Part shown: positions 1-13,497 of the stretch, piece by piece
Layout: each line of letters starts with the position of its first letter
How positions within the stretch are numbered: position 1 is the first letter of the stretch
Assembly (NCBI GenBank): GCA_007127095.1
Contig: SKZY01000254.1
Coordinates: 1-41,828 of the forward strand
From: Planctomycetaceae bacterium
GTDB lineage: Bacteria > Planctomycetota > Planctomycetia > Pirellulales > Pirellulaceae
Length of the DNA: 41,828 nucleotides
Direction: 5' to 3'
Program-made: the position numbers and the translations under genes
Notes under the pieces: generated by a model
Told to the model about the DNA's origin: nothing
The model's input: only the letters and a program-made list of their open reading frames with translations
Database searches by the model: none

Positions 1-308
1 ACCAGTCATGTCAAATACGCTGGCTCACGTCTGGGGCTCGTGTCGCCTTTTCAGTTCAAAGTGGCATTGTTCAGTGCGTCCACTTCGATGAGTAAGACTT
101 GCTGTCGAGAAGTTGCCTAGTTCGCTCATCTTCAAGCTTTCACAACACCGAGATCCCCTGTGGGGGCACGAAAAAGTTAACGCGATCGTTATTTCTTGAG
201 AGATCGCGATGACGTCTCGGAAACGGCGGTTGCGGCTTGTTGTTGGCTGCCTTGCAGGTGGCTATAATCGCCCTGAACTGGACTTGGATCTTTGGCTGAT
301 TTTCCATC
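1..308. other. Intergenic leader before the helicase-nuclease gene
   Basis: No coding region with recognisable product lies here; the short frames on either strand are arginine/serine-rich and look like chance. The stretch contains a plausible promoter at 240-268 for the downstream gene and a small GGGG/CCCC hairpin near 153-164. No tRNA or repeat was seen. Confidence 0.5.
240..268 (+). promoter_or_regulatory. Putative sigma70-type promoter of the helicase-nuclease gene
   Basis: A perfect TATAAT at 263-268 is preceded, after a 17-base spacer, by TTGTTG at 240-245, which matches the first three bases of the -35 consensus. Transcription would start near 275, about 34 bases before the ATG at 309. 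No clear Shine-Dalgarno sequence precedes that ATG. Inference from sequence match only. Confidence 0.5.
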
Positions 309-3300
309 ATGACTGACGAATTGAACCCGACACCGGAACCCGTTTGCATCCAAGCCGAAGCAACCGATTCCTTGAACTACGCGTCTTGGCAAAACTCGGT
401 TCCGCTGCTGAAGTCTTTACAAGTTCGGAATCAAACCGCCGAAGCGATGCAAGATTTGCGGTTATCCGTTGTATCGTCTCCGGCTTTCATTCGTCCCAAG
501 CAGTGGGTTCTCGATCGGCTCGATGCGAAGTCTGAAAACACGCTTCGTGATCGCGATGTGAAGCTGGATGCTGACTACCTCAACGGCCTGAACGAAGCTG
601 AACGCGGCGTGCTGACATTCACCCTCACCCGTGGTGACGTCGTTGTCGGGACGACGGAGAAAGAACTTCGGGTTCTGGCCAGAGATGAATGGGGCGGCTT
701 GAACTCCGGTGGCGAATTGTTGGCGGCATTTGTGATGCCGAACGATCCCGCCATCGCAAAGATCCTCAAAATCGCCGCCGATGTGCTGGCGAATCATGGT
801 CATAGCCCGGCGCTGGACGGATACCAGAGTCGCGACCCGCGTCGCGCCTACATGCTGGTCGCGGCACTTTGGTCAGCGGTGGCGTCTCGATCGTTGACCT
901 ATGCGAACCCGCCACGAAGCTTTGAATTGGTAGGTCAGAAGACTCGCCGGCCAGCCACGGTGATCGCAGACGGCTTGGCGACGTGTTTGGACAGCACTTT
1001 ACTGTTCGCCGCCGCGATCGAAGCCATCGGCCTGAACCCAGTCGTGGTGTTATGCGAAGGCCATTGCTTTGTCGGCGCTTGGCTGGTCGAAAAGACGCTT
1101 GGACAAGTAATCGAACGAGATTGCAGCGAAATCCGTAAAGCGATCGCCGCTAAGGAATTAATCACATTCGAGACGACTCTCGTCACGGGACGTCCGCCCG
1201 CTCCCTTTGAGGACGCTGTGAGAACCGCAGCGGACTTGACCAGCGCAGCCAAAGAAGATGAATACCAAGCATCCATCGACATCGGGCGTGCTCGGATGGC
1301 TCAAATTCGACCGCTTGCGTCGCATCAAGCGGCATCGCAACATGCCGACGAAACGCACGAAGAACGGGGGCCGCTCCCACTTCCCGCAGCACCAGGATTC
1401 GCTGATATCGCGACCGACGAAGTGGAGGAGAAGCCGGCGACCCCTGAAGGACGCATCGACCGATGGCAACGGAAACTGCTGGATTTGTCGCTTCGCAATC
1501 GCCTACTGAACTTCAAACCAAACAAGCAGTCGGTTCCGATTCTGTGTCCAGATATCTCACTTCTTGAAGACCGCTTGGCTGCCGGAAAAAAGTTGCGGTT
1601 GATTTCGTTGCCAGAGCAAAACCCACTCCGTGAACGTGATGCGGAACTCCATCGCCAGCGAACCAATCAAGATTTCAACACTGAGTTTGCTCGTGTTGCT
1701 TTGGACCGTAACGAAGTTTCCTGCTCGCTGACCGAGCAGGAATTGTCGAGTCGCCTGACCACCATCTACCGCAACGTCCGCAACGACCTTTCCGAAGGCG
1801 GATCAAACACGCTGTTTCTTGCCGTTGGGTTCTTGCGATGGAAACAGAAACCGGAAGACTCCAAGAGCTATCGGGCACCGTTGCTGTTGGTTCCCGTCAA
1901 ACTGACACGCAAGAGTGCTCTATCGCCGTTCCATCTTACGCTACACGAAGATGATGTGCGGTTCAACGCGACCCTAATTCAATTGCTCAAAAAGGACTTC
2001 GGTCGCGATCTGTCATTCCTTGAATCGGATTTGCCCCGCGATGAGAGTGGCGTCGATGTGCCGAAGGTTCTGGAGCGGATGCGGCGTGAAATCCGTGATA
2101 TTCCAGGATTTGAAGTGGCCGACGAGTCGGCACTGGGGACGTTCTCGTTCGCCAAATACTTGATGTGGAAGGACCTGGTCGATCGCATCGGAACATTGAA
2201 ACAAAACCGCGTCGTTCGACACTTGGTCGACAATCCCGAACAGGCGTTCGAATCGGTGTCTGGTTCGATTCCGAATCCGCATCAGATCGACGTTCGATTT
2301 GATCCAAAAGACATCTATCATCCACTGCCGGCCGATTCATCTCAATTGGCCGCCGTAATGGCCGCTTCCGAAGGTCAGGACTTTGTCCTCGTTGGACCAC
2401 CGGGAACAGGAAAGAGCCAGACGATTGCGAACATCATTTCACAATGCTTAGCTACTGGCAAAACAGTATTGTTCGTTGCCGAAAAAACGGCTGCCTTGGA
2501 TGTGGTCTATCGACGCTTGAAGGAACACGGGCTGGGCGATTGCTGCCTTGAATTACACAGCAACAAAGCCGAACGCCGAAAGTTTCTTAGTCAATTAGAC
2601 GCGGCTTGGCAAAACAACCAGCGAGCGAAGAGGAATGCCTGGCTAACCATTAGCGAACGGTTGCGAATTCGCCGTGACGAGCTGAATGCCTACGTATCCT
2701 CGATTCACCGAACGCACCCCAACGAATGGTCGGCATTTGAGGCGATGGGTACTTGTGTCAAGGGCGGCGACCAGCCGACACCAACGCTTGATTGGGCTGA
2801 CACAGTTCAACATGATCATGACGCCTATCAGAAACTCGCCCGAATCGTCGATGCACTCGCGCTCACTTACGGTGCCATCGACCCAGCGTTCGCGTTACCG
2901 ATGGTAAAGAAGGCTCAGTGGTCCGCCTCGTGGGAACAATCGCTGCTTTCGCAGTGCGGGCAATTGCAACAGGCTGCGGTTGGTTTGCGAGACGCGTTGC
3001 AGGCTTTCAGCGAAGCGATCGGAATTGGTCCGAAGTCGGATTGTTCGCTGGCCGAGATGGACGTTTTGAGCCGATTGGCACAGTCGCTGGTCAATTGTGC
3101 AGGCGAGGATGTCCGCATTCTGTTCCACAAACAGTTCGCCAAGTTCGCGACTGCTCAAGCTGAACTGAACGCCGCTATTGACGCCTATCAAGGTTCGGTG
3201 CAGTCCATGGACGCCGACTACTCGGCTTCACTCGAAGCCATACCGTTGAATGAGATCGACCAACGTTGGCGTCAGGCGGTTTCGTCATTCTTTCCCATGT

Positions 3301-6077
3301 CATGGTTCGCAAAGCGAAAGGTAACCCGCTTATTGCAGACGTATGCATCGAGTGGTATCGCCAATCCGGAAACCGATATTGGTGCCATTCGGTCCGTGCG
3401 TGACCAATTGGCAATCATTGCGGCCAGCCCTTTAGCGAATCAAACCGGTTTTTGGAATGCCGCGGAAACCGACATGTCCAAGGTCGATGTTCAGTTAACC
3501 AAAGCGGGCGAACTCCGCACCGCGATCGTCATGGTTGGAAAGGTTTTGGGAGCGACGAACGAGATTTCCAAAGCGGTTCAGCCGCACATTGACGGCAGTA
3601 ACATTGAAGCGCCGCCGTTTGTTGCTGCCACGCAATTTCTGAAAGCGACCCAAAAGTTTTTGGCCGGGATCAAGGTATTTGCGGAAGCTTCCGGTGCAAG
3701 TCCGCTGTCAAAAGAAACGCCAGCGATCGCCGAAGCTTCGCTCGCGGCCGCGCGGGGTATCGAAGCGAAGCGAAGTGGCCTTCAGCGTTGGACATCGTGG
3801 TGCGACGTGAAAAGTAGGGCTGAGCCGGTAGGCCTCGGCTCATTTGTAACCGCATTAGAACAAGGCGAAGTTGATGCATCTGACCTGGCCGATCGCTTCC
3901 GTCTGGCATATTCGCGATGGTGGATCCGCCAGATCATCGACCGAGACGATGTCCTTCGATCGTTCCAGCGTTTTAAGCATGAAGATGCGATCGCCGACTT
4001 CCGCAAGCTGGACGAGCAGGCACGAGCTTTAGCGTCGACGAGGGTTAAACAAGCTATCGCCCACCATTTGCCGGTTGACGGCGTTCCCAAAAGAAGCGAA
4101 CTCGGGCTGCTGCGCCATCAAATCGGATTGACTCGGCCCAGCAAGTCGATTCGCGAGGTCATCGGTTCGATGCCCGAGGCGTTTGGGAGGCTCGCACCTT
4201 GTCTGCTGATGTCACCGCTGTCGATCGCACAGTATTTACCAGCGGATCAGGCCTTGTTCGATGTCGTGATCTTTGACGAAGCCTCACAGATCACGACCTG
4301 GGATGCCGTCGGTGCGATCGCTCGTGGCCGCCAAACGATCATTGTCGGCGATCCCAAACAGCTGCCCCCAACGAACTTTTTTGGTCGCACGGATGACGAT
4401 GACACGAATGACGAGATCGAAGACCACGAGAAGGATCTCGAAAGCATCCTTGACGAGGCGAAAGCTTCAGGCCTTCCGACACTGCAATTAAATTGGCACT
4501 ATCGAAGTCGTCACGAATCGTTGATCGCGTTCTCGAACTGGAACTACTACGGCAACAACCTGGTGACGTTTCCTGCCGCGGAGTCCGATGACCGCGGCGT
4601 GTCCTTCGTTCACCTCCCCGATGCGGTTTACGATCGTGGTAATAGTCGAACCAATCGCAAGGAAGCCGAAGCGATTGTTCACAACGCTGTCGCGAGAATG
4701 AAACGTAATCTTCAACTCCCAGAGGAAAAGCGTTTGACTTTCGGTGTGATCACATTCAACAGCCAACAGCAAACACTGATTCAAGACTTGTTCGATCAAG
4801 CCCAGAGAGATTCCCCGGAACTTGATTGGTACTTTTCCGACGAGCGTATCGAGCCGACGGTCGTGAAGAACTTGGAGAACGTTCAGGGCGACGAACGCGA
4901 TGTGATGCTGTTTTCAATCACTTTCGGTCGCGACATCTCCGGCAAAAGCATTCCGCTGACTTTTGGCGCTCTGAACCGCGATGGTGGCGAGAGACGCTTG
5001 AACGTTGCCGTTACAAGAGCTCGGCAAGAATTGGTGGTCTTTTCGTCATTTAAGGCAGATGAACTGAATGCGGAGCGATCGAAGGCTCGCGGGGTGAATG
5101 ACCTGAAGGCCTTCTTGGAGTACGCCGAAAAAGGCCCTGAAGCGATCGCGGCGAGAATAGAGGGCAGCGTCGGCGGGTTTGATTCGCCGTTCGAGGAGGC
5201 GGTCGCCGGAGCTTTACAGAACAAGGGTTGGCAGGTCGTCCCACAAGTCGGCGTTTCTGGTTTCCGAGTCGATTTGGGCATTCGACATCCAGACAAACCT
5301 GGAGCGTATCTTGCCGGGGTCGAATGTGACGGTGCAACTTACCATCGCAGCGCGGTGGCACGCGATCGCGACAAAACACGGCAAATGGTGCTGGAAAACC
5401 TTGGCTGGAAAATTCTTCGAGTCTGGTCGCCTGACTGGTGGTACGACTCCGTATCGGCAACACAGTTTTTGAATCAACAGCTTTCCGAGCTTCTTGAAGA
5501 ATCGCGAAGCGATGTCGATACAGTCGCCGAGACTTCCGAGAGTGATTGCGGCTCGGTTGGTTCACAAACGGAGCCACAGGTCTACTTTGCTCGCGTGAAG
5601 CTGACCGACGCCATGGTCAACCAAGGCCGCTTCTACGACTCTTCCTACGATGATGAGTTGAAGCAAATGGCATTGGAGATTTTGAAGCACGAAGCGCCGG
5701 TCCGGGAAGATATCTTGGCCAAGCAAGTAGCCCGCGCTCATGGTTTCGCACGGACCGGAGTCAACATCCGAGGTCGAATTCTTGCGTTACTGGGCAACGT
5801 CGTATCAACGGACGAATCGACCGGTCGTTTTCTTTGGGCAAGCGACGCGCCGAAGCCGATCGTCGACTTCCGGCACGCAAAAGCGGACAATGATCAGCGC
5901 AGCGTCGATGAAATTTCGATCGCCGAGTTAGGTGGATTGATCCATCAGTCCCGCGAACTGCTCGCCGAGGATGACCCCGCGGTCGCGGTCGCCCGTAGCA
6001 TCGGCCTTAGCCGTTTAACTCAGTCGTCCAGAGAACGAATTGAAGAAGCGATCCGACTCGCCTGTGGCGATCAGTGA
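309..6077 (+). CDS. Giant DUF4011 / SF1 helicase / Vsr-like nuclease protein (putative antiphage defence)
   Basis: A 1922-residue multidomain protein. An N-terminal transglutaminase-like segment (about residues 150-300) shows Cys226 in a TCLD context and His252 in GHCF. DUF4011 follows (about 405-700). The helicase has Walker A GPPGTGKS at 696-703, DEAS at 1323-1326, GDPKQLPP just after, HYRSR from 1397 and VAVTRAR near 1566-1572; a long insertion of about 560 residues separates motifs Ia and II. A Vsr/MTES_1575-type endonuclease lies at about 1630-1710 (VECDG at 1671-1675), then DUF3320 at about 1750-1800. The family is known from predicted defence loci; as I recall, this architecture was listed as 'hhe' among candidate antiphage genes. 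It stands alone with no methylase beside it. The gene looks more AT-rich than its neighbours, consistent with transfer. Role in phage defence is inferred. Confidence 0.9.
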   Translation: MTDELNPTPEPVCIQAEATDSLNYASWQNSVPLLKSLQVRNQTAEAMQDLRLSVVSSPAFIRPKQWVLDRLDAKSENTLRDRDVKLDADYLNGLNEAERGVLTFTLTRGDVVVGTTEKELRVLARDEWGGLNSGGELLAAFVMPNDPAIAKILKIAADVLANHGHSPALDGYQSRDPRRAYMLVAALWSAVASRSLTYANPPRSFELVGQKTRRPATVIADGLATCLDSTLLFAAAIEAIGLNPVVVLCEGHCFVGAWLVEKTLGQVIERDCSEIRKAIAAKELITFETTLVTGRPPAPFEDAVRTAADLTSAAKEDEYQASIDIGRARMAQIRPLASHQAASQHADETHEERGPLPLPAAPGFADIATDEVEEKPATPEGRIDRWQRKLLDLSLRNRLLNFKPNKQSVPILCPDISLLEDRLAAGKKLRLISLPEQNPLRERDAELHRQRTNQDFNTEFARVALDRNEVSCSLTEQELSSRLTTIYRNVRNDLSEGGSNTLFLAVGFLRWKQKPEDSKSYRAPLLLVPVKLTRKSALSPFHLTLHEDDVRFNATLIQLLKKDFGRDLSFLESDLPRDESGVDVPKVLERMRREIRDIPGFEVADESALGTFSFAKYLMWKDLVDRIGTLKQNRVVRHLVDNPEQAFESVSGSIPNPHQIDVRFDPKDIYHPLPADSSQLAAVMAASEGQDFVLVGPPGTGKSQTIANIISQCLATGKTVLFVAEKTAALDVVYRRLKEHGLGDCCLELHSNKAERRKFLSQLDAAWQNNQRAKRNAWLTISERLRIRRDELNAYVSSIHRTHPNEWSAFEAMGTCVKGGDQPTPTLDWADTVQHDHDAYQKLARIVDALALTYGAIDPAFALPMVKKAQWSASWEQSLLSQCGQLQQAAVGLRDALQAFSEAIGIGPKSDCSLAEMDVLSRLAQSLVNCAGEDVRILFHKQFAKFATAQAELNAAIDAYQGSVQSMDADYSASLEAIPLNEIDQRWRQAVSSFFPMSWFAKRKVTRLLQTYASSGIANPETDIGAIRSVRDQLAIIAASPLANQTGFWNAAETDMSKVDVQLTKAGELRTAIVMVGKVLGATNEISKAVQPHIDGSNIEAPPFVAATQFLKATQKFLAGIKVFAEASGASPLSKETPAIAEASLAAARGIEAKRSGLQRWTSWCDVKSRAEPVGLGSFVTALEQGEVDASDLADRFRLAYSRWWIRQIIDRDDVLRSFQRFKHEDAIADFRKLDEQARALASTRVKQAIAHHLPVDGVPKRSELGLLRHQIGLTRPSKSIREVIGSMPEAFGRLAPCLLMSPLSIAQYLPADQALFDVVIFDEASQITTWDAVGAIARGRQTIIVGDPKQLPPTNFFGRTDDDDTNDEIEDHEKDLESILDEAKASGLPTLQLNWHYRSRHESLIAFSNWNYYGNNLVTFPAAESDDRGVSFVHLPDAVYDRGNSRTNRKEAEAIVHNAVARMKRNLQLPEEKRLTFGVITFNSQQQTLIQDLFDQAQRDSPELDWYFSDERIEPTVVKNLENVQGDERDVMLFSITFGRDISGKSIPLTFGALNRDGGERRLNVAVTRARQELVVFSSFKADELNAERSKARGVNDLKAFLEYAEKGPEAIAARIEGSVGGFDSPFEEAVAGALQNKGWQVVPQVGVSGFRVDLGIRHPDKPGAYLAGVECDGATYHRSAVARDRDKTRQMVLENLGWKILRVWSPDWWYDSVSATQFLNQQLSELLEESRSDVDTVAETSESDCGSVGSQTEPQVYFARVKLTDAMVNQGRFYDSSYDDELKQMALEILKHEAPVREDILAKQVARAHGFARTGVNIRGRILALLGNVVSTDESTGRFLWASDAPKPIVDFRHAKADNDQRSVDEISIAELGGLIHQSRELLAEDDPAVAVARSIGLSRLTQSSRERIEEAIRLACGDQ

Positions 6078-6371: not shown

Positions 6372-6420
6372 TGCACCGATTCCGTTTAGGTTTTTTGGGC
6401 CGCGAGTGATGGTGCCACGA

Positions 6421-8289
6421 ATGAGACAATTCAATTCCGTTTTGTTGATCGTTTTCTGCCTGTCCGCAGCAGACGCTGCTGATCCGATCGGATGGCAAAC
6501 CCACTTTCCGTTTGACCTGCAGGGACTGAACGGCCAGCAATACAATCTTTCACAAAATGACAAGTTGGTCAGCCGAGCGTTCGTCTTCTTGTCGACTTCT
6601 TGCCCGGTTTCCAATTCGTACATTCCTGAACTCAATCGGCTGACGAAGACATTGCCCACTGGCGTCGAATTATACGGCGTCTTATCGGATCCCAGCACGA
6701 CCAGGGAGATGGCAACAAAGCACTTTGCGGAATACAAGACGGCGTTTCCCATCCTGTTCGATGCATCGCGATTGATGAGCATGACGCTCAAACCGACACA
6801 TGTTCCCGAAGCATTCGTTTTGAACCCTGCGGGTGAGTTGGTCTATCGTGGCGCGATCGATAACGCCTACGCATCGATCGGTCGAAGGCGGGTGAATGTC
6901 GAGAATCGCTATCTTTCGGATGCGCTTGCCACGGTTGCTGCGGGGCGAAATCCGACGCTCAGCCGAACCGAGCCTGTCGGATGCGTTCTACCTCCAGCCC
7001 GAACGGACCGACCGGTCGGCGAAATAACGTATGCCCGCGATATCGCCCCGATCTTGCAGCAGCGTTGCGAAACCTGCCATCGCCCTGGCCAGGTCGCTCC
7101 GTTCGCGATAGCGAATTACGGCGAAGCGAAATCGCATGCGGACATGATCGTTGAAGTCACACGACGTCGGCTCATGCCCCCTTGGATTCCCGGCCCGCAG
7201 ACGGCGCACCGCTTCGTCGGCCAGCGATGGTTGAGCGATCGAGAACTGGAATTGCTGGACAAATGGGTCGAGCAGGGCTGTGCTTTGGGTGACACTGCCG
7301 ACCTGCCGCCCCGTCCCACGTTTGCCGAGGGGTGGCAATTGGGCATTCCCGATCTTGTGGTCAGGATGCAAGAGCCCTTCGCGGTTCCGGCGTCGGGTCC
7401 AGACCTGCTCCAAAATTTCGTACTGCCCATCGAAATCCCCGAGGACAAATTGGTGGCCGCAGTCGAGTTCCACCCCGGCAACAAACGCGTCGTACACCAT
7501 GCGGTCCTGTTCCTCGACGACAAAGGGCGAGCGCGAGAGCTCGATGCGGCGACACCCGAACCTGGCTATGCCAACTTTGGTGGGCCTGGCTTTTTGCCCA
7601 GCGGGGCACTCGGTGGCTGGTCGGTTGGGAACACGGCGCGACGACTGCCCAACGAGATGGGTAGGTATTTAAAGCAGGGGAGCGATCTTGTCGTGCAAGT
7701 CCACTATCATCCGACCGGGAAAATCGAAGTCGATCAATCCGAAGTTGGCCTTTACTTTGTCGACAAACCGGTGGAACAGTCGCTGCGAGAACCTGCGAAG
7801 CTTGTCGGCAGCATCTGGATGGCAAACTACGAAATGGATATCCCGGCTGGCGAATCGAACTATCGGCGATCGACATCCTATACCCTGCCTGCCGATCTGA
7901 TCATGGTTGGCATTGTCCCGCACATGCACCTGCTCGGCAAATCGATGCGGGTGACGGCGACTCAGCCGAGTAAACGACCGGAAGTGCTGATCGACATTCC
8001 GGACTGGAATTACAATTGGCAAGACGAGTATTACTACGAACGACCGATCCGCTTGAAAGCCGGTACCAAGATTGACGTCGAAGCCGTCTTTGACAATTCG
8101 TCTGATAACCCCTCGAATCCGTCATCACCGCCGGAGCGAGTCACTTGGGGCGAGGCAACCACGGACGAAATGTTGTTCTGCTTTTTTTTGATTACCGCCG
8201 AAAAGACCGAAGATTTGATCTATACGATTTTCGACAATCTGAAGCATGACCTGCAGCAGAATCGTAGAGACGTGAGTCAAACGCGATGA
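6421..8289 (+). CDS. Secreted redoxin / cytochrome c / copper type II monooxygenase fusion
   Basis: About 622 residues. The ATG at 6421 gives a clean signal peptide (hydrophobic to about residue 20, ending SAADAAD); GTG 6406 and ATG 6409 are alternatives in the same frame. Domains in order: an AhpC/TSA-like thioredoxin fold with Cys61 in a CPVS motif; a mono-haem cytochrome c segment, CETCH at 216-220; and a module resembling the copper type II ascorbate-dependent monooxygenases (PHM/DBM family). The last keeps the expected copper ligands: His359-His360, His428-x-His430, His501-x-His503 and Met584 in a TDEM motif. It should act outside the cytoplasmic membrane, passing electrons from haem to copper and hydroxylating an unknown substrate. 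Its stop overlaps the start of the TetR gene. The fold calls are strong; the substrate is unknown. Confidence 0.85.
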   Translation: MRQFNSVLLIVFCLSAADAADPIGWQTHFPFDLQGLNGQQYNLSQNDKLVSRAFVFLSTSCPVSNSYIPELNRLTKTLPTGVELYGVLSDPSTTREMATKHFAEYKTAFPILFDASRLMSMTLKPTHVPEAFVLNPAGELVYRGAIDNAYASIGRRRVNVENRYLSDALATVAAGRNPTLSRTEPVGCVLPPARTDRPVGEITYARDIAPILQQRCETCHRPGQVAPFAIANYGEAKSHADMIVEVTRRRLMPPWIPGPQTAHRFVGQRWLSDRELELLDKWVEQGCALGDTADLPPRPTFAEGWQLGIPDLVVRMQEPFAVPASGPDLLQNFVLPIEIPEDKLVAAVEFHPGNKRVVHHAVLFLDDKGRARELDAATPEPGYANFGGPGFLPSGALGGWSVGNTARRLPNEMGRYLKQGSDLVVQVHYHPTGKIEVDQSEVGLYFVDKPVEQSLREPAKLVGSIWMANYEMDIPAGESNYRRSTSYTLPADLIMVGIVPHMHLLGKSMRVTATQPSKRPEVLIDIPDWNYNWQDEYYYERPIRLKAGTKIDVEAVFDNSSDNPSNPSSPPERVTWGEATTDEMLFCFFLITAEKTEDLIYTIFDNLKHDLQQNRRDVSQTR

Positions 8290-12244: not shown

Positions 12245-12330
12245 GCAATGTGCGAAAAAAACCGCCAGATACTTATGCCCCCACTCGACCGCAAACGACA
12301 GCCCAAACACGCACACAAACGGGATTTTAC

Positions 12331-13497
12331 ATGATGCACCAAATTGTCAGAGAACAGCTTTCCAAGTTCCTTGCGGATCAGCATCCTCCCTGTGTTTCGC
12401 TTTACATGCCGACCCACCGGCGGCACCCTGAAAACCAGCAAGATCCGATTCGATTCAGAAACCTGCTGCAAAGGCTCGAAGGCTTACTCAGTCAAGACCC
12501 CTCGAACCGCGAAACAGGGAAAAAAATACTGACAAGACTACAGACGCTTTCACATGATGAACCGTTTTGGAACCGACGCACAGAAGGACTAGCAATCCTC
12601 AGTTCACCTGATGCGTTCCAAATTTTCGATCTCTATAATCCTGTCGAAGAATTGATGGTGGTCGCTGACAGCTTCCACATCAAGCCGCTTCTGTGGGCAT
12701 TACAGGCGACAGACCGTTTCCAAGTACTCGGCCTCAACCGCCATGCAGCAAAACTATACGAGGGCAATCGCAAAACACTGAACGAAATCAAACTTAACAA
12801 TGGAGTGCCTGCGACAATCGAAGAGGCATTAGGGAGTGAGCTCACCGAAGCCCATTTGACGGTAGGGTCTTACGGCGGCAGTGGCCGCCCAGGGCACGGC
12901 TCCCCTTCGATGCATCATGGTCATGGTCAGAAGAAAGAAGAAGTCGAGATTGACAACCAACGTTTCTTTCGCGCAGTCGACCGAGCAATCCTTGAACATC
13001 ACTCACGGCCGACTCGGCTTCCGTTGCTGCTTGCCGCTTTAGCGGAACATCACGACGTATTTCGTAAAATCAGTCACAATCCGTTTCTGCTGGAAGTCGG
13101 CATTAAATTGGATCCGCAGTCGGTTTCAGGAGAACGTTTGCGTTCAGCAGCCTGGCAAGTGATGGAGCCGTACTTTATGCAGCGGATTGCGAAGTACATC
13201 GAGGACTTCCAAACTGCACAATCTCAACAGCTGGGTGCAAGCGACTTGACCGACATTGCTCACGCTCTGATCGCCGGCAGAGTGGGAGTTTTACTGGTCG
13301 AAGCCGATCGGGAGATTCCCGGCAAACTCGACCCCGCGACAGGTTCTCTTGAATTCCTCGCTCTCGAAGCGACGGACGTAGACGACCTGCTTGATGACTT
13401 CGCCGAGTTGGCGTTGAAGATGGGAGGCGAAGTCATGATCATCCCTGCGGAACAAATGCCGTCGACAACCGGTGCGGCAGCAACCTACCGATACTAA
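12331..13497 (+). CDS. baeRF-type (bacterial/archaeal eRF1-like) protein, probably family 3
   Basis: 388 residues from ATG 12331 (a second ATG follows at 12334; the frame opens at GTG 12250 but the added residues are low-complexity). The order of segments fits the bacterial archaeo-eukaryotic release factor family: CVSLYMPTHR near residue 20, DPIRFRNLL, a central strand-rich domain with FHIKPLLWALQ and YEGNR, a glycine/histidine-rich loop (about 195-220, HHGHGQKK), then AEHHDVFRKISHNPFLL and a C-terminal alpha/beta domain. Related proteins are proposed to act on stalled or hibernating ribosomes. Sitting behind an HPF-family gene supports a ribosome-stress role. Function is inferred. Confidence 0.75.
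   Translation: MMHQIVREQLSKFLADQHPPCVSLYMPTHRRHPENQQDPIRFRNLLQRLEGLLSQDPSNRETGKKILTRLQTLSHDEPFWNRRTEGLAILSSPDAFQIFDLYNPVEELMVVADSFHIKPLLWALQATDRFQVLGLNRHAAKLYEGNRKTLNEIKLNNGVPATIEEALGSELTEAHLTVGSYGGSGRPGHGSPSMHHGHGQKKEEVEIDNQRFFRAVDRAILEHHSRPTRLPLLLAALAEHHDVFRKISHNPFLLEVGIKLDPQSVSGERLRSAAWQVMEPYFMQRIAKYIEDFQTAQSQQLGASDLTDIAHALIAGRVGVLLVEADREIPGKLDPATGSLEFLALEATDVDDLLDDFAELALKMGGEVMIIPAEQMPSTTGAAATYRY

What the first reader, a model, noticed from the sequence alone, without database searches (positions are those of the whole stretch)
309..6077. Lone DUF4011 helicase / Vsr-like nuclease, a candidate single-gene defence system
Helicase and nuclease motifs are intact, the gene is solitary and appears more AT-rich than its surroundings, and the architecture is one associated with predicted antiphage loci. 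A planctomycete example is of interest because defence in this phylum is little tested.
Basis: partly seen in the sequence, partly recalled or inferred. Interest (0 to 1): 0.55.

Follow-up and report, generated by a model that had tools for sequence, protein, structure and literature searches.

The report
ProA-family antiphage helicase-nuclease in a planctomycete
The gene is an intact, probably horizontally acquired copy of an already named antiphage protein family (ProA) that joins a transglutaminase-fold domain, a DNA helicase and a nuclease in one protein, so it is a new member of a known kind rather than a new system.

Summary
In detail: an intact 1,922-residue ORF at 309-6077 carries DUF4011, SF1 helicase, an MTES_1575/Vsr-like nuclease and DUF3320. 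The protein is not Hhe (802.7 bits, cut-off 2000); it matches NCBIfam NF058533 'anti-phage protein ProA' end to end (2126.9 bits, cut-off 1500). 'Solitary' cannot be tested: the window is a whole contig and the gene starts 308 bp from its end. Horizontal movement is supported: the nearest copy found is in another genus, pieces in two congeners lie at another place, and an AU test on 1,590 columns rejects a genus clade (p 0.0076), though one on 348 columns did not (p 0.276). In other hosts some copies sit beside restriction, ubiquitin-like or SbcCD-like genes. Phage protection by this copy is untested, and my paper searches found no source for the ProA name. New member of a known kind.

The parts
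309..6077 (+). ProA-family gene, 1,922 aa, intact
   Evidence: NCBIfam NF058533.1 2126.9 bits, residues 23-1902, profile 1-1903; PADLOC PDC-S37 1215.8 bits
333..680 (+). Ig-like beta-sandwich, residues 9-124
   Evidence: AlphaFold2 model of residues 1-385, mean pLDDT 93.1; the 50 VIA-align rows shown (Z 9.4-10.7) span residues 9-124 and are domains of varied function
681..1328 (+). transglutaminase-fold domain, residues 125-340; triad C226, H252, D/E271
   Evidence: AlphaFold2 mean pLDDT 96.2; VIA-align rows with Z 7.0-9.3 led by PNGase and a putative cysteine protease, with transglutaminases, Rad4/XPC and LapG; triad; weak Pfam Transglut_core/DUF553 hits in 5 and 6 of 50 members, none of them the window protein
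1473..1988 (+). DUF4011 domain, residues 389-560
   Evidence: PF13195 8.4e-48; the only DUF4011 match in the genome
2337..2510 (+). SF1 helicase motif I region with Walker A GPPGTGKSQ (K702)
   Evidence: AAA_30 677-734; K702 85/85
4248..4373 (+). helicase motifs II-III (FDEAS, GDPKQLPPT)
   Evidence: AAA_11 1314-1355; E1324 85/85
4449..5045 (+). helicase C-terminal lobe, motifs IV-VI
   Evidence: AAA_12 1381-1579
5190..5483 (+). MTES_1575 / Vsr-like PD-(D/E)XK-type nuclease, with VECDG
   Evidence: PF18741 3.2e-33, residues 1628-1725; E1672 and D1674 84/85. The PD-(D/E)XK label is recalled
5628..5771 (+). DUF3320, residues 1774-1821
   Evidence: PF11784 6.5e-14
1..308 (.). all the upstream sequence there is; contig end; no long forward frame
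6406..8289 (+). next larger gene downstream: redoxin-like N-terminal part, rest unnamed; no PADLOC match

Best explanation
It is an intact member of the ProA family that NCBI names antiphage, probably acquired horizontally within its planctomycete family. Most likely mechanism (inferred, not shown): the DUF4011/SF1 helicase engages invading DNA at ends, single-stranded stretches or replication intermediates and moves along it using ATP; the linked MTES_1575 nuclease then cuts that DNA. The N-terminal transglutaminase-fold domain is probably an active cysteine protease or transferase that either releases the nuclease on sensing infection or acts on a phage or host protein. Shown here: family membership, intact and conserved catalytic motifs, the transglutaminase fold by prediction, a non-vertical history on the longer alignment, and defence-type neighbours for some copies in other hosts. 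Inferred: DNA as substrate, order of events, role of the protease-like domain, and protection against phage.
For: Full-length NF058533 match over the curated cut-off. Domains and intact motifs. Confident N-terminal models and their fold matches. Patchy presence: over the ProA cut-off in 11 of 117 related genomes, 6 of them matching the profile from position 1. The nearest copy found, in G048 of another genus, is 82% identical over 1,587 columns against 67% and 68% for congeners G004 and G001, although rpoB is 84.8% for G048 and 93.8% (593 residues) for G001. AU test rejects a genus clade, p 0.0076. Different place in G001/G004. Plasmids: 449 of 72,556 records match, 67 with at least 80% of the query. 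Neighbours elsewhere: a type I restriction endonuclease subunit over its cut-off, about 2.4 kb upstream of the G024 copy; an Old/GajA-like gene in L155; multiubiquitin, ThiF, E2 or Mov34-type genes in 3 of 8 plasmid loci read; in L130, L132, L135 and L143 genes that I read as HsdM and HsdS, of which only the L135 HsdM was scanned and it scored below the hsdM cut-off.
Against: The PADLOC scan of 10 downstream genes gave nothing I count as a defence system, and upstream is unknown. The AU test on 348 columns did not reject a genus clade, p 0.276. Some relatives lack the N-terminal domain, others stop after the nuclease, and L093, L095, L097 and L129 differ at nuclease D1655, so not every part may be needed. 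A DUF4011 gene is a core gene flanking a defence hotspot in every P. aeruginosa isolate examined (PMC10250203, passages seen), which would fit a housekeeping role if that gene is ProA; I did not test that. My paper searches found none that describes ProA as antiphage, so the family's activity rests here on NCBI's name.
Confidence: 0.6

Rival explanations
1. A DNA repair or replication-fork helicase-nuclease of the host, not a defence gene.
For: SbcCD-type proteins are repair proteins (recalled), and an SbcD-like and a YhaN/SbcC-like gene lie together near ProA in 12 of 80 named loci. A DUF4011 gene is core in P. aeruginosa.
Against: Patchy distribution, different loci within a genus, cross-genus nearest copy and plasmid carriage; restriction and ubiquitin-like gene neighbours elsewhere.
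Confidence: 0.15
2. A multi-gene system in which ProA needs partners, such as the SbcCD-like pair, and the window shows only one gene of it because the contig ends.
For: 12 of 80 named loci hold both partner clusters, in several orientations. Of 8 plasmid loci read, 4 (H3, H6, H7, H10) have a 'DNA repair exonuclease' followed by a large gene annotated YhaN family, DNA-binding protein or AAA family ATPase, next to ProA; H2 has an AAA ATPase beside ProA and an sbcD further off.
Against: H14, H18 and H13 lack the pair. None of the named planctomycete loci is in the two partner clusters, and by eye I saw no such pair in the wider maps of G048, G070, G024, G034 and G060. G048, the nearest copy, has a DUF2130 gene just upstream and a TM0106-type nuclease-helicase about 1.1 kb downstream instead. 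In the window the next larger genes downstream are redoxin-like and TetR.
Confidence: 0.2
3. An Hhe-type system.
For: PADLOC Hhe 533 bits and NCBIfam Hhe 802.7 bits point to common descent.
Against: NCBIfam Hhe cut-off of 2000 not reached; ProA cut-off exceeded.
Confidence: 0.03

Closest known systems
NCBIfam NF058533.1, anti-phage protein ProA
   Same: Whole-length match, profile 1-1903, 2126.9 bits against cut-off 1500; the G048, Pseudomonas (L157), L112 and L095 copies also pass
   Different: Nothing found in sequence marks this copy as unusual; planctomycete host, contig-end context; activity untested
PADLOC PDC-S37
   Same: 1215.8 bits over residues 382-1916
   Different: The profile (1,550 positions) lines up without the N-terminal 381 residues
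Hhe (NF042953.1, PADLOC Hhe)
   Same: DUF4011 helicase and nuclease region matches
   Different: 802.7 bits, under the cut-off of 2000
Mokosh MkoA/MkoC (PADLOC)
   Same: Helicase region
   Different: 80-123 bits for the best models, mostly helicase-limited; Mokosh's own nuclease type is recalled, not tested
Transglutaminase-like superfamily (PNGase, LapG, PeiW/PeiP, transglutaminases, Rad4)
   Same: Predicted fold, Z 7.0-9.3, and C-H-D/E triad; that these proteins form one superfamily is recalled
   Different: No solved structure by sequence profile; Foldseek gave no match at E 0.001 or below for this domain

Membership tests
ProA (NF058533.1) | score over the curated cut-off of 1500 bits | tested here: met
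   2126.9 bits
ProA (NF058533.1) | match along the whole profile, N-terminal part included | tested here: met
   profile 1-1903, residues 23-1902; a copy without the N-terminus, L008, also passes the cut-off
ProA (NF058533.1) | protection against phage | not testable with these tools
   needs a phage assay
Hhe (NF042953.1) | score over the curated cut-off of 2000 bits | tested here: not met
   802.7 bits
PDC-S37 (PADLOC) | profile match over most of the model | tested here: met
   1215.8 bits, profile 9-1531 of 1550; the tool gives no cut-off
SF1 helicase | Walker A, Walker B and motifs III-VI present | tested here: met
   motif names are recalled
MTES_1575 REase (PF18741) | over the Pfam cut-off, with conserved acidic residues | tested here: met
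   114.1 bits against 38.2; E1629, D1655, E1672, D1674 present
Transglutaminase-like superfamily | fold | tested here: met
   pLDDT 96.2 model; the VIA-align rows shown are, by my reading of their names, mostly this fold; Foldseek alone gave no E of 0.001 or below, and the tool warns that Z under 8 may be a common arrangement
Transglutaminase-like superfamily | conserved Cys-His-Asp/Glu triad | tested here: met
   C226 and H252 in 84 of 85 rows, D or E at 271 in 83 of 85; L016, which has no such N-terminus, is the exception at C226 and H252
Transglutaminase-like superfamily | Pfam sequence match | tested here: inconclusive
   Transglut_core in 5 and DUF553 in 6 of 50 members, best E 0.0029 and 0.0018; not in the window protein
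Transglutaminase-like superfamily | protease or transferase activity | not testable with these tools
   needs biochemistry

The most novel reading that the evidence does not exclude
ProA is a protease-gated DNA-degrading immune machine: a transglutaminase-fold cysteine protease sets loose, or is set loose by, a helicase-nuclease. In other hosts it is coupled to an SbcCD-like end-sensing pair, so that copies like this one are a minimal form of a modular DNA-end surveillance system.
Probability: 0.2. Interest if true: 0.6.

Novelty: new member of a known kind. Interest (0 to 1): 0.3.

Why it matters
It places a named antiphage family in planctomycetes, gives evidence of its movement between genera, and points to a conserved transglutaminase-fold domain that Pfam does not name in this protein and to a recurring SbcCD-like gene pair as testable parts of its mechanism.

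Tried and rejected
Hhe membership: rejected on the cut-off. Search of solved structures by sequence: only helicase-part matches for the whole protein; one match at E 0.91 for the transglutaminase-domain profile, taken as chance. Viral origin: 3 of 50,697 phage records match, one covering 88% at 32% identity; not pursued. PHROGs: helicase matches and unnamed families only. Exact empty-site comparison: the best-scoring matches to the neighbouring redoxin gene in the four congeners are 34-37% identical, so it is no anchor. Orthologues of the left flank of the G001/G004 copies lie on G000 contig C317 with 13.5 kb on the ProA-facing side and no ProA match there, but the right-flank genes were not found beside them, so no exact empty site was found. 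Origin of the name ProA: none of nine paper searches gave it. Foldseek and VIA-align on the 1-385 model were filled mostly by beta-sandwich matches, so the domain was modelled alone. Not done: a fold search against the viral library, a structure of the helicase or nuclease part. The tree on 348 columns did not reject a genus clade.

Full report
What is there. The window is one entire contig, C466, of a draft genome of 475 contigs, 95.57% complete. The ORF at 309-6077 is intact and codes for 1,922 residues. Pfam finds DUF4011 (389-560), AAA_11/AAA_12 helicase parts, an MTES_1575 restriction-endonuclease domain (1628-1725) and DUF3320 (1774-1821). The gene is AT-richer than its contig, GC 0.549 against 0.594; its GC3 is 0.596, where 14 of the 15 other genes measured have 0.64-0.79 and one has 0.53.

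What family it is. NCBIfam NF058533.1 'anti-phage protein ProA' matches from profile position 1 to 1903 with 2126.9 bits (cut-off 1500); Hhe reaches 802.7 of 2000 bits. PADLOC's best is PDC-S37, 1215.8 bits over residues 382-1916; Hhe has 533 bits. A ProA call is no proof of the full architecture: L008, a relative without the N-terminus, also passes with 1587.4 bits. My paper searches found no paper that describes this ProA; the antiphage role of the family rests here on NCBI's name.

The N-terminus. AlphaFold2 on residues 1-385 with 50 sequences gave mean pLDDT 93.1; residues 9-124 match Ig-like sandwiches. Residues 125-340 modelled alone gave pLDDT 96.2. Foldseek gave no match at E 0.001 or below. 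The 50 VIA-align rows shown, Z 7.0 to 9.3, are by my reading of their names mostly transglutaminase-fold proteins: PNGase, a putative cysteine protease, transglutaminases, PeiW/PeiP, LapG, Rad4/XPC, with axonemal proteins among them. The tool warns that Z under 8 can be a common arrangement; I weigh it together with the triad. In the 85-row alignment C226 and H252 are kept in 84 and position 271 is D or E in 83; L016, which has no such N-terminus, is the exception at C226 and H252. Pfam finds Transglut_core in 5 and DUF553 in 6 of 50 members at weak E-values, none in the window protein.

Catalytic core. The 85 rows are the window protein and 84 of the 109 others extracted; short or open-ended ones were left out, with three exceptions (L089-L091). 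Walker A K702, Walker B E1324 and motif VI R1570 are invariant; nuclease E1629 is kept in 83, D1655 in 80, E1672 and D1674 in 84. L093, L095, L097 and L129 have Ala or Ser at 1655; L006 differs at 1629; L090 is a gap at these sites because it runs off its contig.

Distribution and movement. Of 117 genomes of relatives, 11 pass the ProA cut-off, 6 of them from profile position 1; the other 5 start at 340-356. In the genus, G001 and G004 hold pieces of the gene on several contigs each, which I take to be one gene apiece; for G002 (89% complete) and G003 (99% complete) the listed matches are weak and confined to the helicase (at most 3 candidates were scored in each genome and the list was cut). 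G001 and G004 share both flanks; the right-flank genes look like LURP-type, comB and purK, names that are my reading and come from no call. G000 orthologues of the left flank lie on contig C317, where no ProA match was found. The G000 copy is 82% identical to that of G048, another genus, and 67-68% to those of G004 and G001, whereas rpoB is 84.8% to G048 and 93.8% to G001 over 593 residues. A tree of 17 rows and 1,590 columns, with 14 relatives that I chose, joins the window with G048 at 99/98, and the AU test rejects window plus G001 plus G004 as a clade, p 0.0076. On 348 columns and 40 rows the same test gave p 0.276. The congener rows are partial (1,285 and 802 columns). In genome contigs 449 of 466 candidate stretches encode relatives and the best 80 were kept, from planctomycetes to alpha-, gamma- and zetaproteobacteria, Verrucomicrobia and Chlorobi; 449 plasmid records match, 67 with at least 80% of the query.

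Neighbours elsewhere. In the 80 named loci, clustering of neighbouring ORFs put an SbcD-type gene near ProA in 15 and a YhaN/SbcC-like gene in 12, both together in 12. The labels rest on scans of two SbcD-type members (Metallophos) and one YhaN-like member (AAA_27). The other three loci (L102, L125, L148) share a different large gene that looks like a P-loop ATPase and was not scanned. Of the 80, 61 have at least 4.5 kb upstream and 48 have it on both sides. Many of the 12 are Rhodobacterales, so they are not independent, and no random-gene control was run. The pair occurs co-directed, divergent and downstream. NCBIfam names neither gene as part of a ProA system. The G024 copy has a type I restriction endonuclease subunit over its cut-off about 2.4 kb upstream. 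L155 has an Old/GajA-like gene. In L130, L132, L135 and L143 I read HsdM and HsdS genes upstream; only the L135 HsdM was scanned, and it lies below that model's cut-off. Of eight plasmid loci, picked by me from the 20 rows listed, three show multiubiquitin, ThiF, E2 or Mov34-type genes (H3, H14, H7) and four an exonuclease with a large ATPase-type gene (H3, H6, H7, H10). In the window, PADLOC hits of 10 genes scanned are mad3 (7.3e-30) and mad8 at an ABC transporter and HEAT-ARM_XIII (9e-18) at a WD40 gene; mad3 also hits the YhaN-like gene, and I read these as generic.

Mechanism. I commit to a DNA-targeting helicase-nuclease with a regulatory or effector transglutaminase-fold domain. The enzymatic parts are shown by sequence and prediction; substrate, order of events and protection are inferred.

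Verdict.

Noticed in passing
L046:2120-4082 (G004:C101): In G004 a DUF2887 ORF (2789-3640) lies between two copies (94% over 338 bp) of the ProA N-terminal region, as if something had inserted with a long duplication.
   Followed up: partly
L029:1-3102 (G001:C315): The G001 copy is split into two overlapping frames near residue 925; draft error or decay not distinguished.
   Followed up: no
G105:C14, G089:C95, G027:C1, G114:C326, G091:C129: Open frames of 419-455 aa match only the N-terminal part of the ProA profile; G105 and G114 also carry an N-terminus-less helicase form on another contig. A possible split form.
   Followed up: no
L093, L095, L097: These Rhodopirellula/Stieleria-type copies differ at nuclease Asp 1655, and their alignment to the window protein stops at residue 1731-1735, before DUF3320.
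   Followed up: partly
L112, L114, L115, L116, L122: SbcD-like, YhaN/SbcC-like and ProA genes in one row on one strand, an apparent operon; NCBIfam does not name the L112 partners as a system.
   Followed up: partly
L185:8935-17441 (R. leguminosarum Vaf-108 plasmid): The ProA homologue is annotated in two parts with istA and istB between them.
   Followed up: no
window 12250-13497: baeRF family 3 gene with the lowest GC3 (0.53) of the genes measured; another possible incomer.
   Followed up: no
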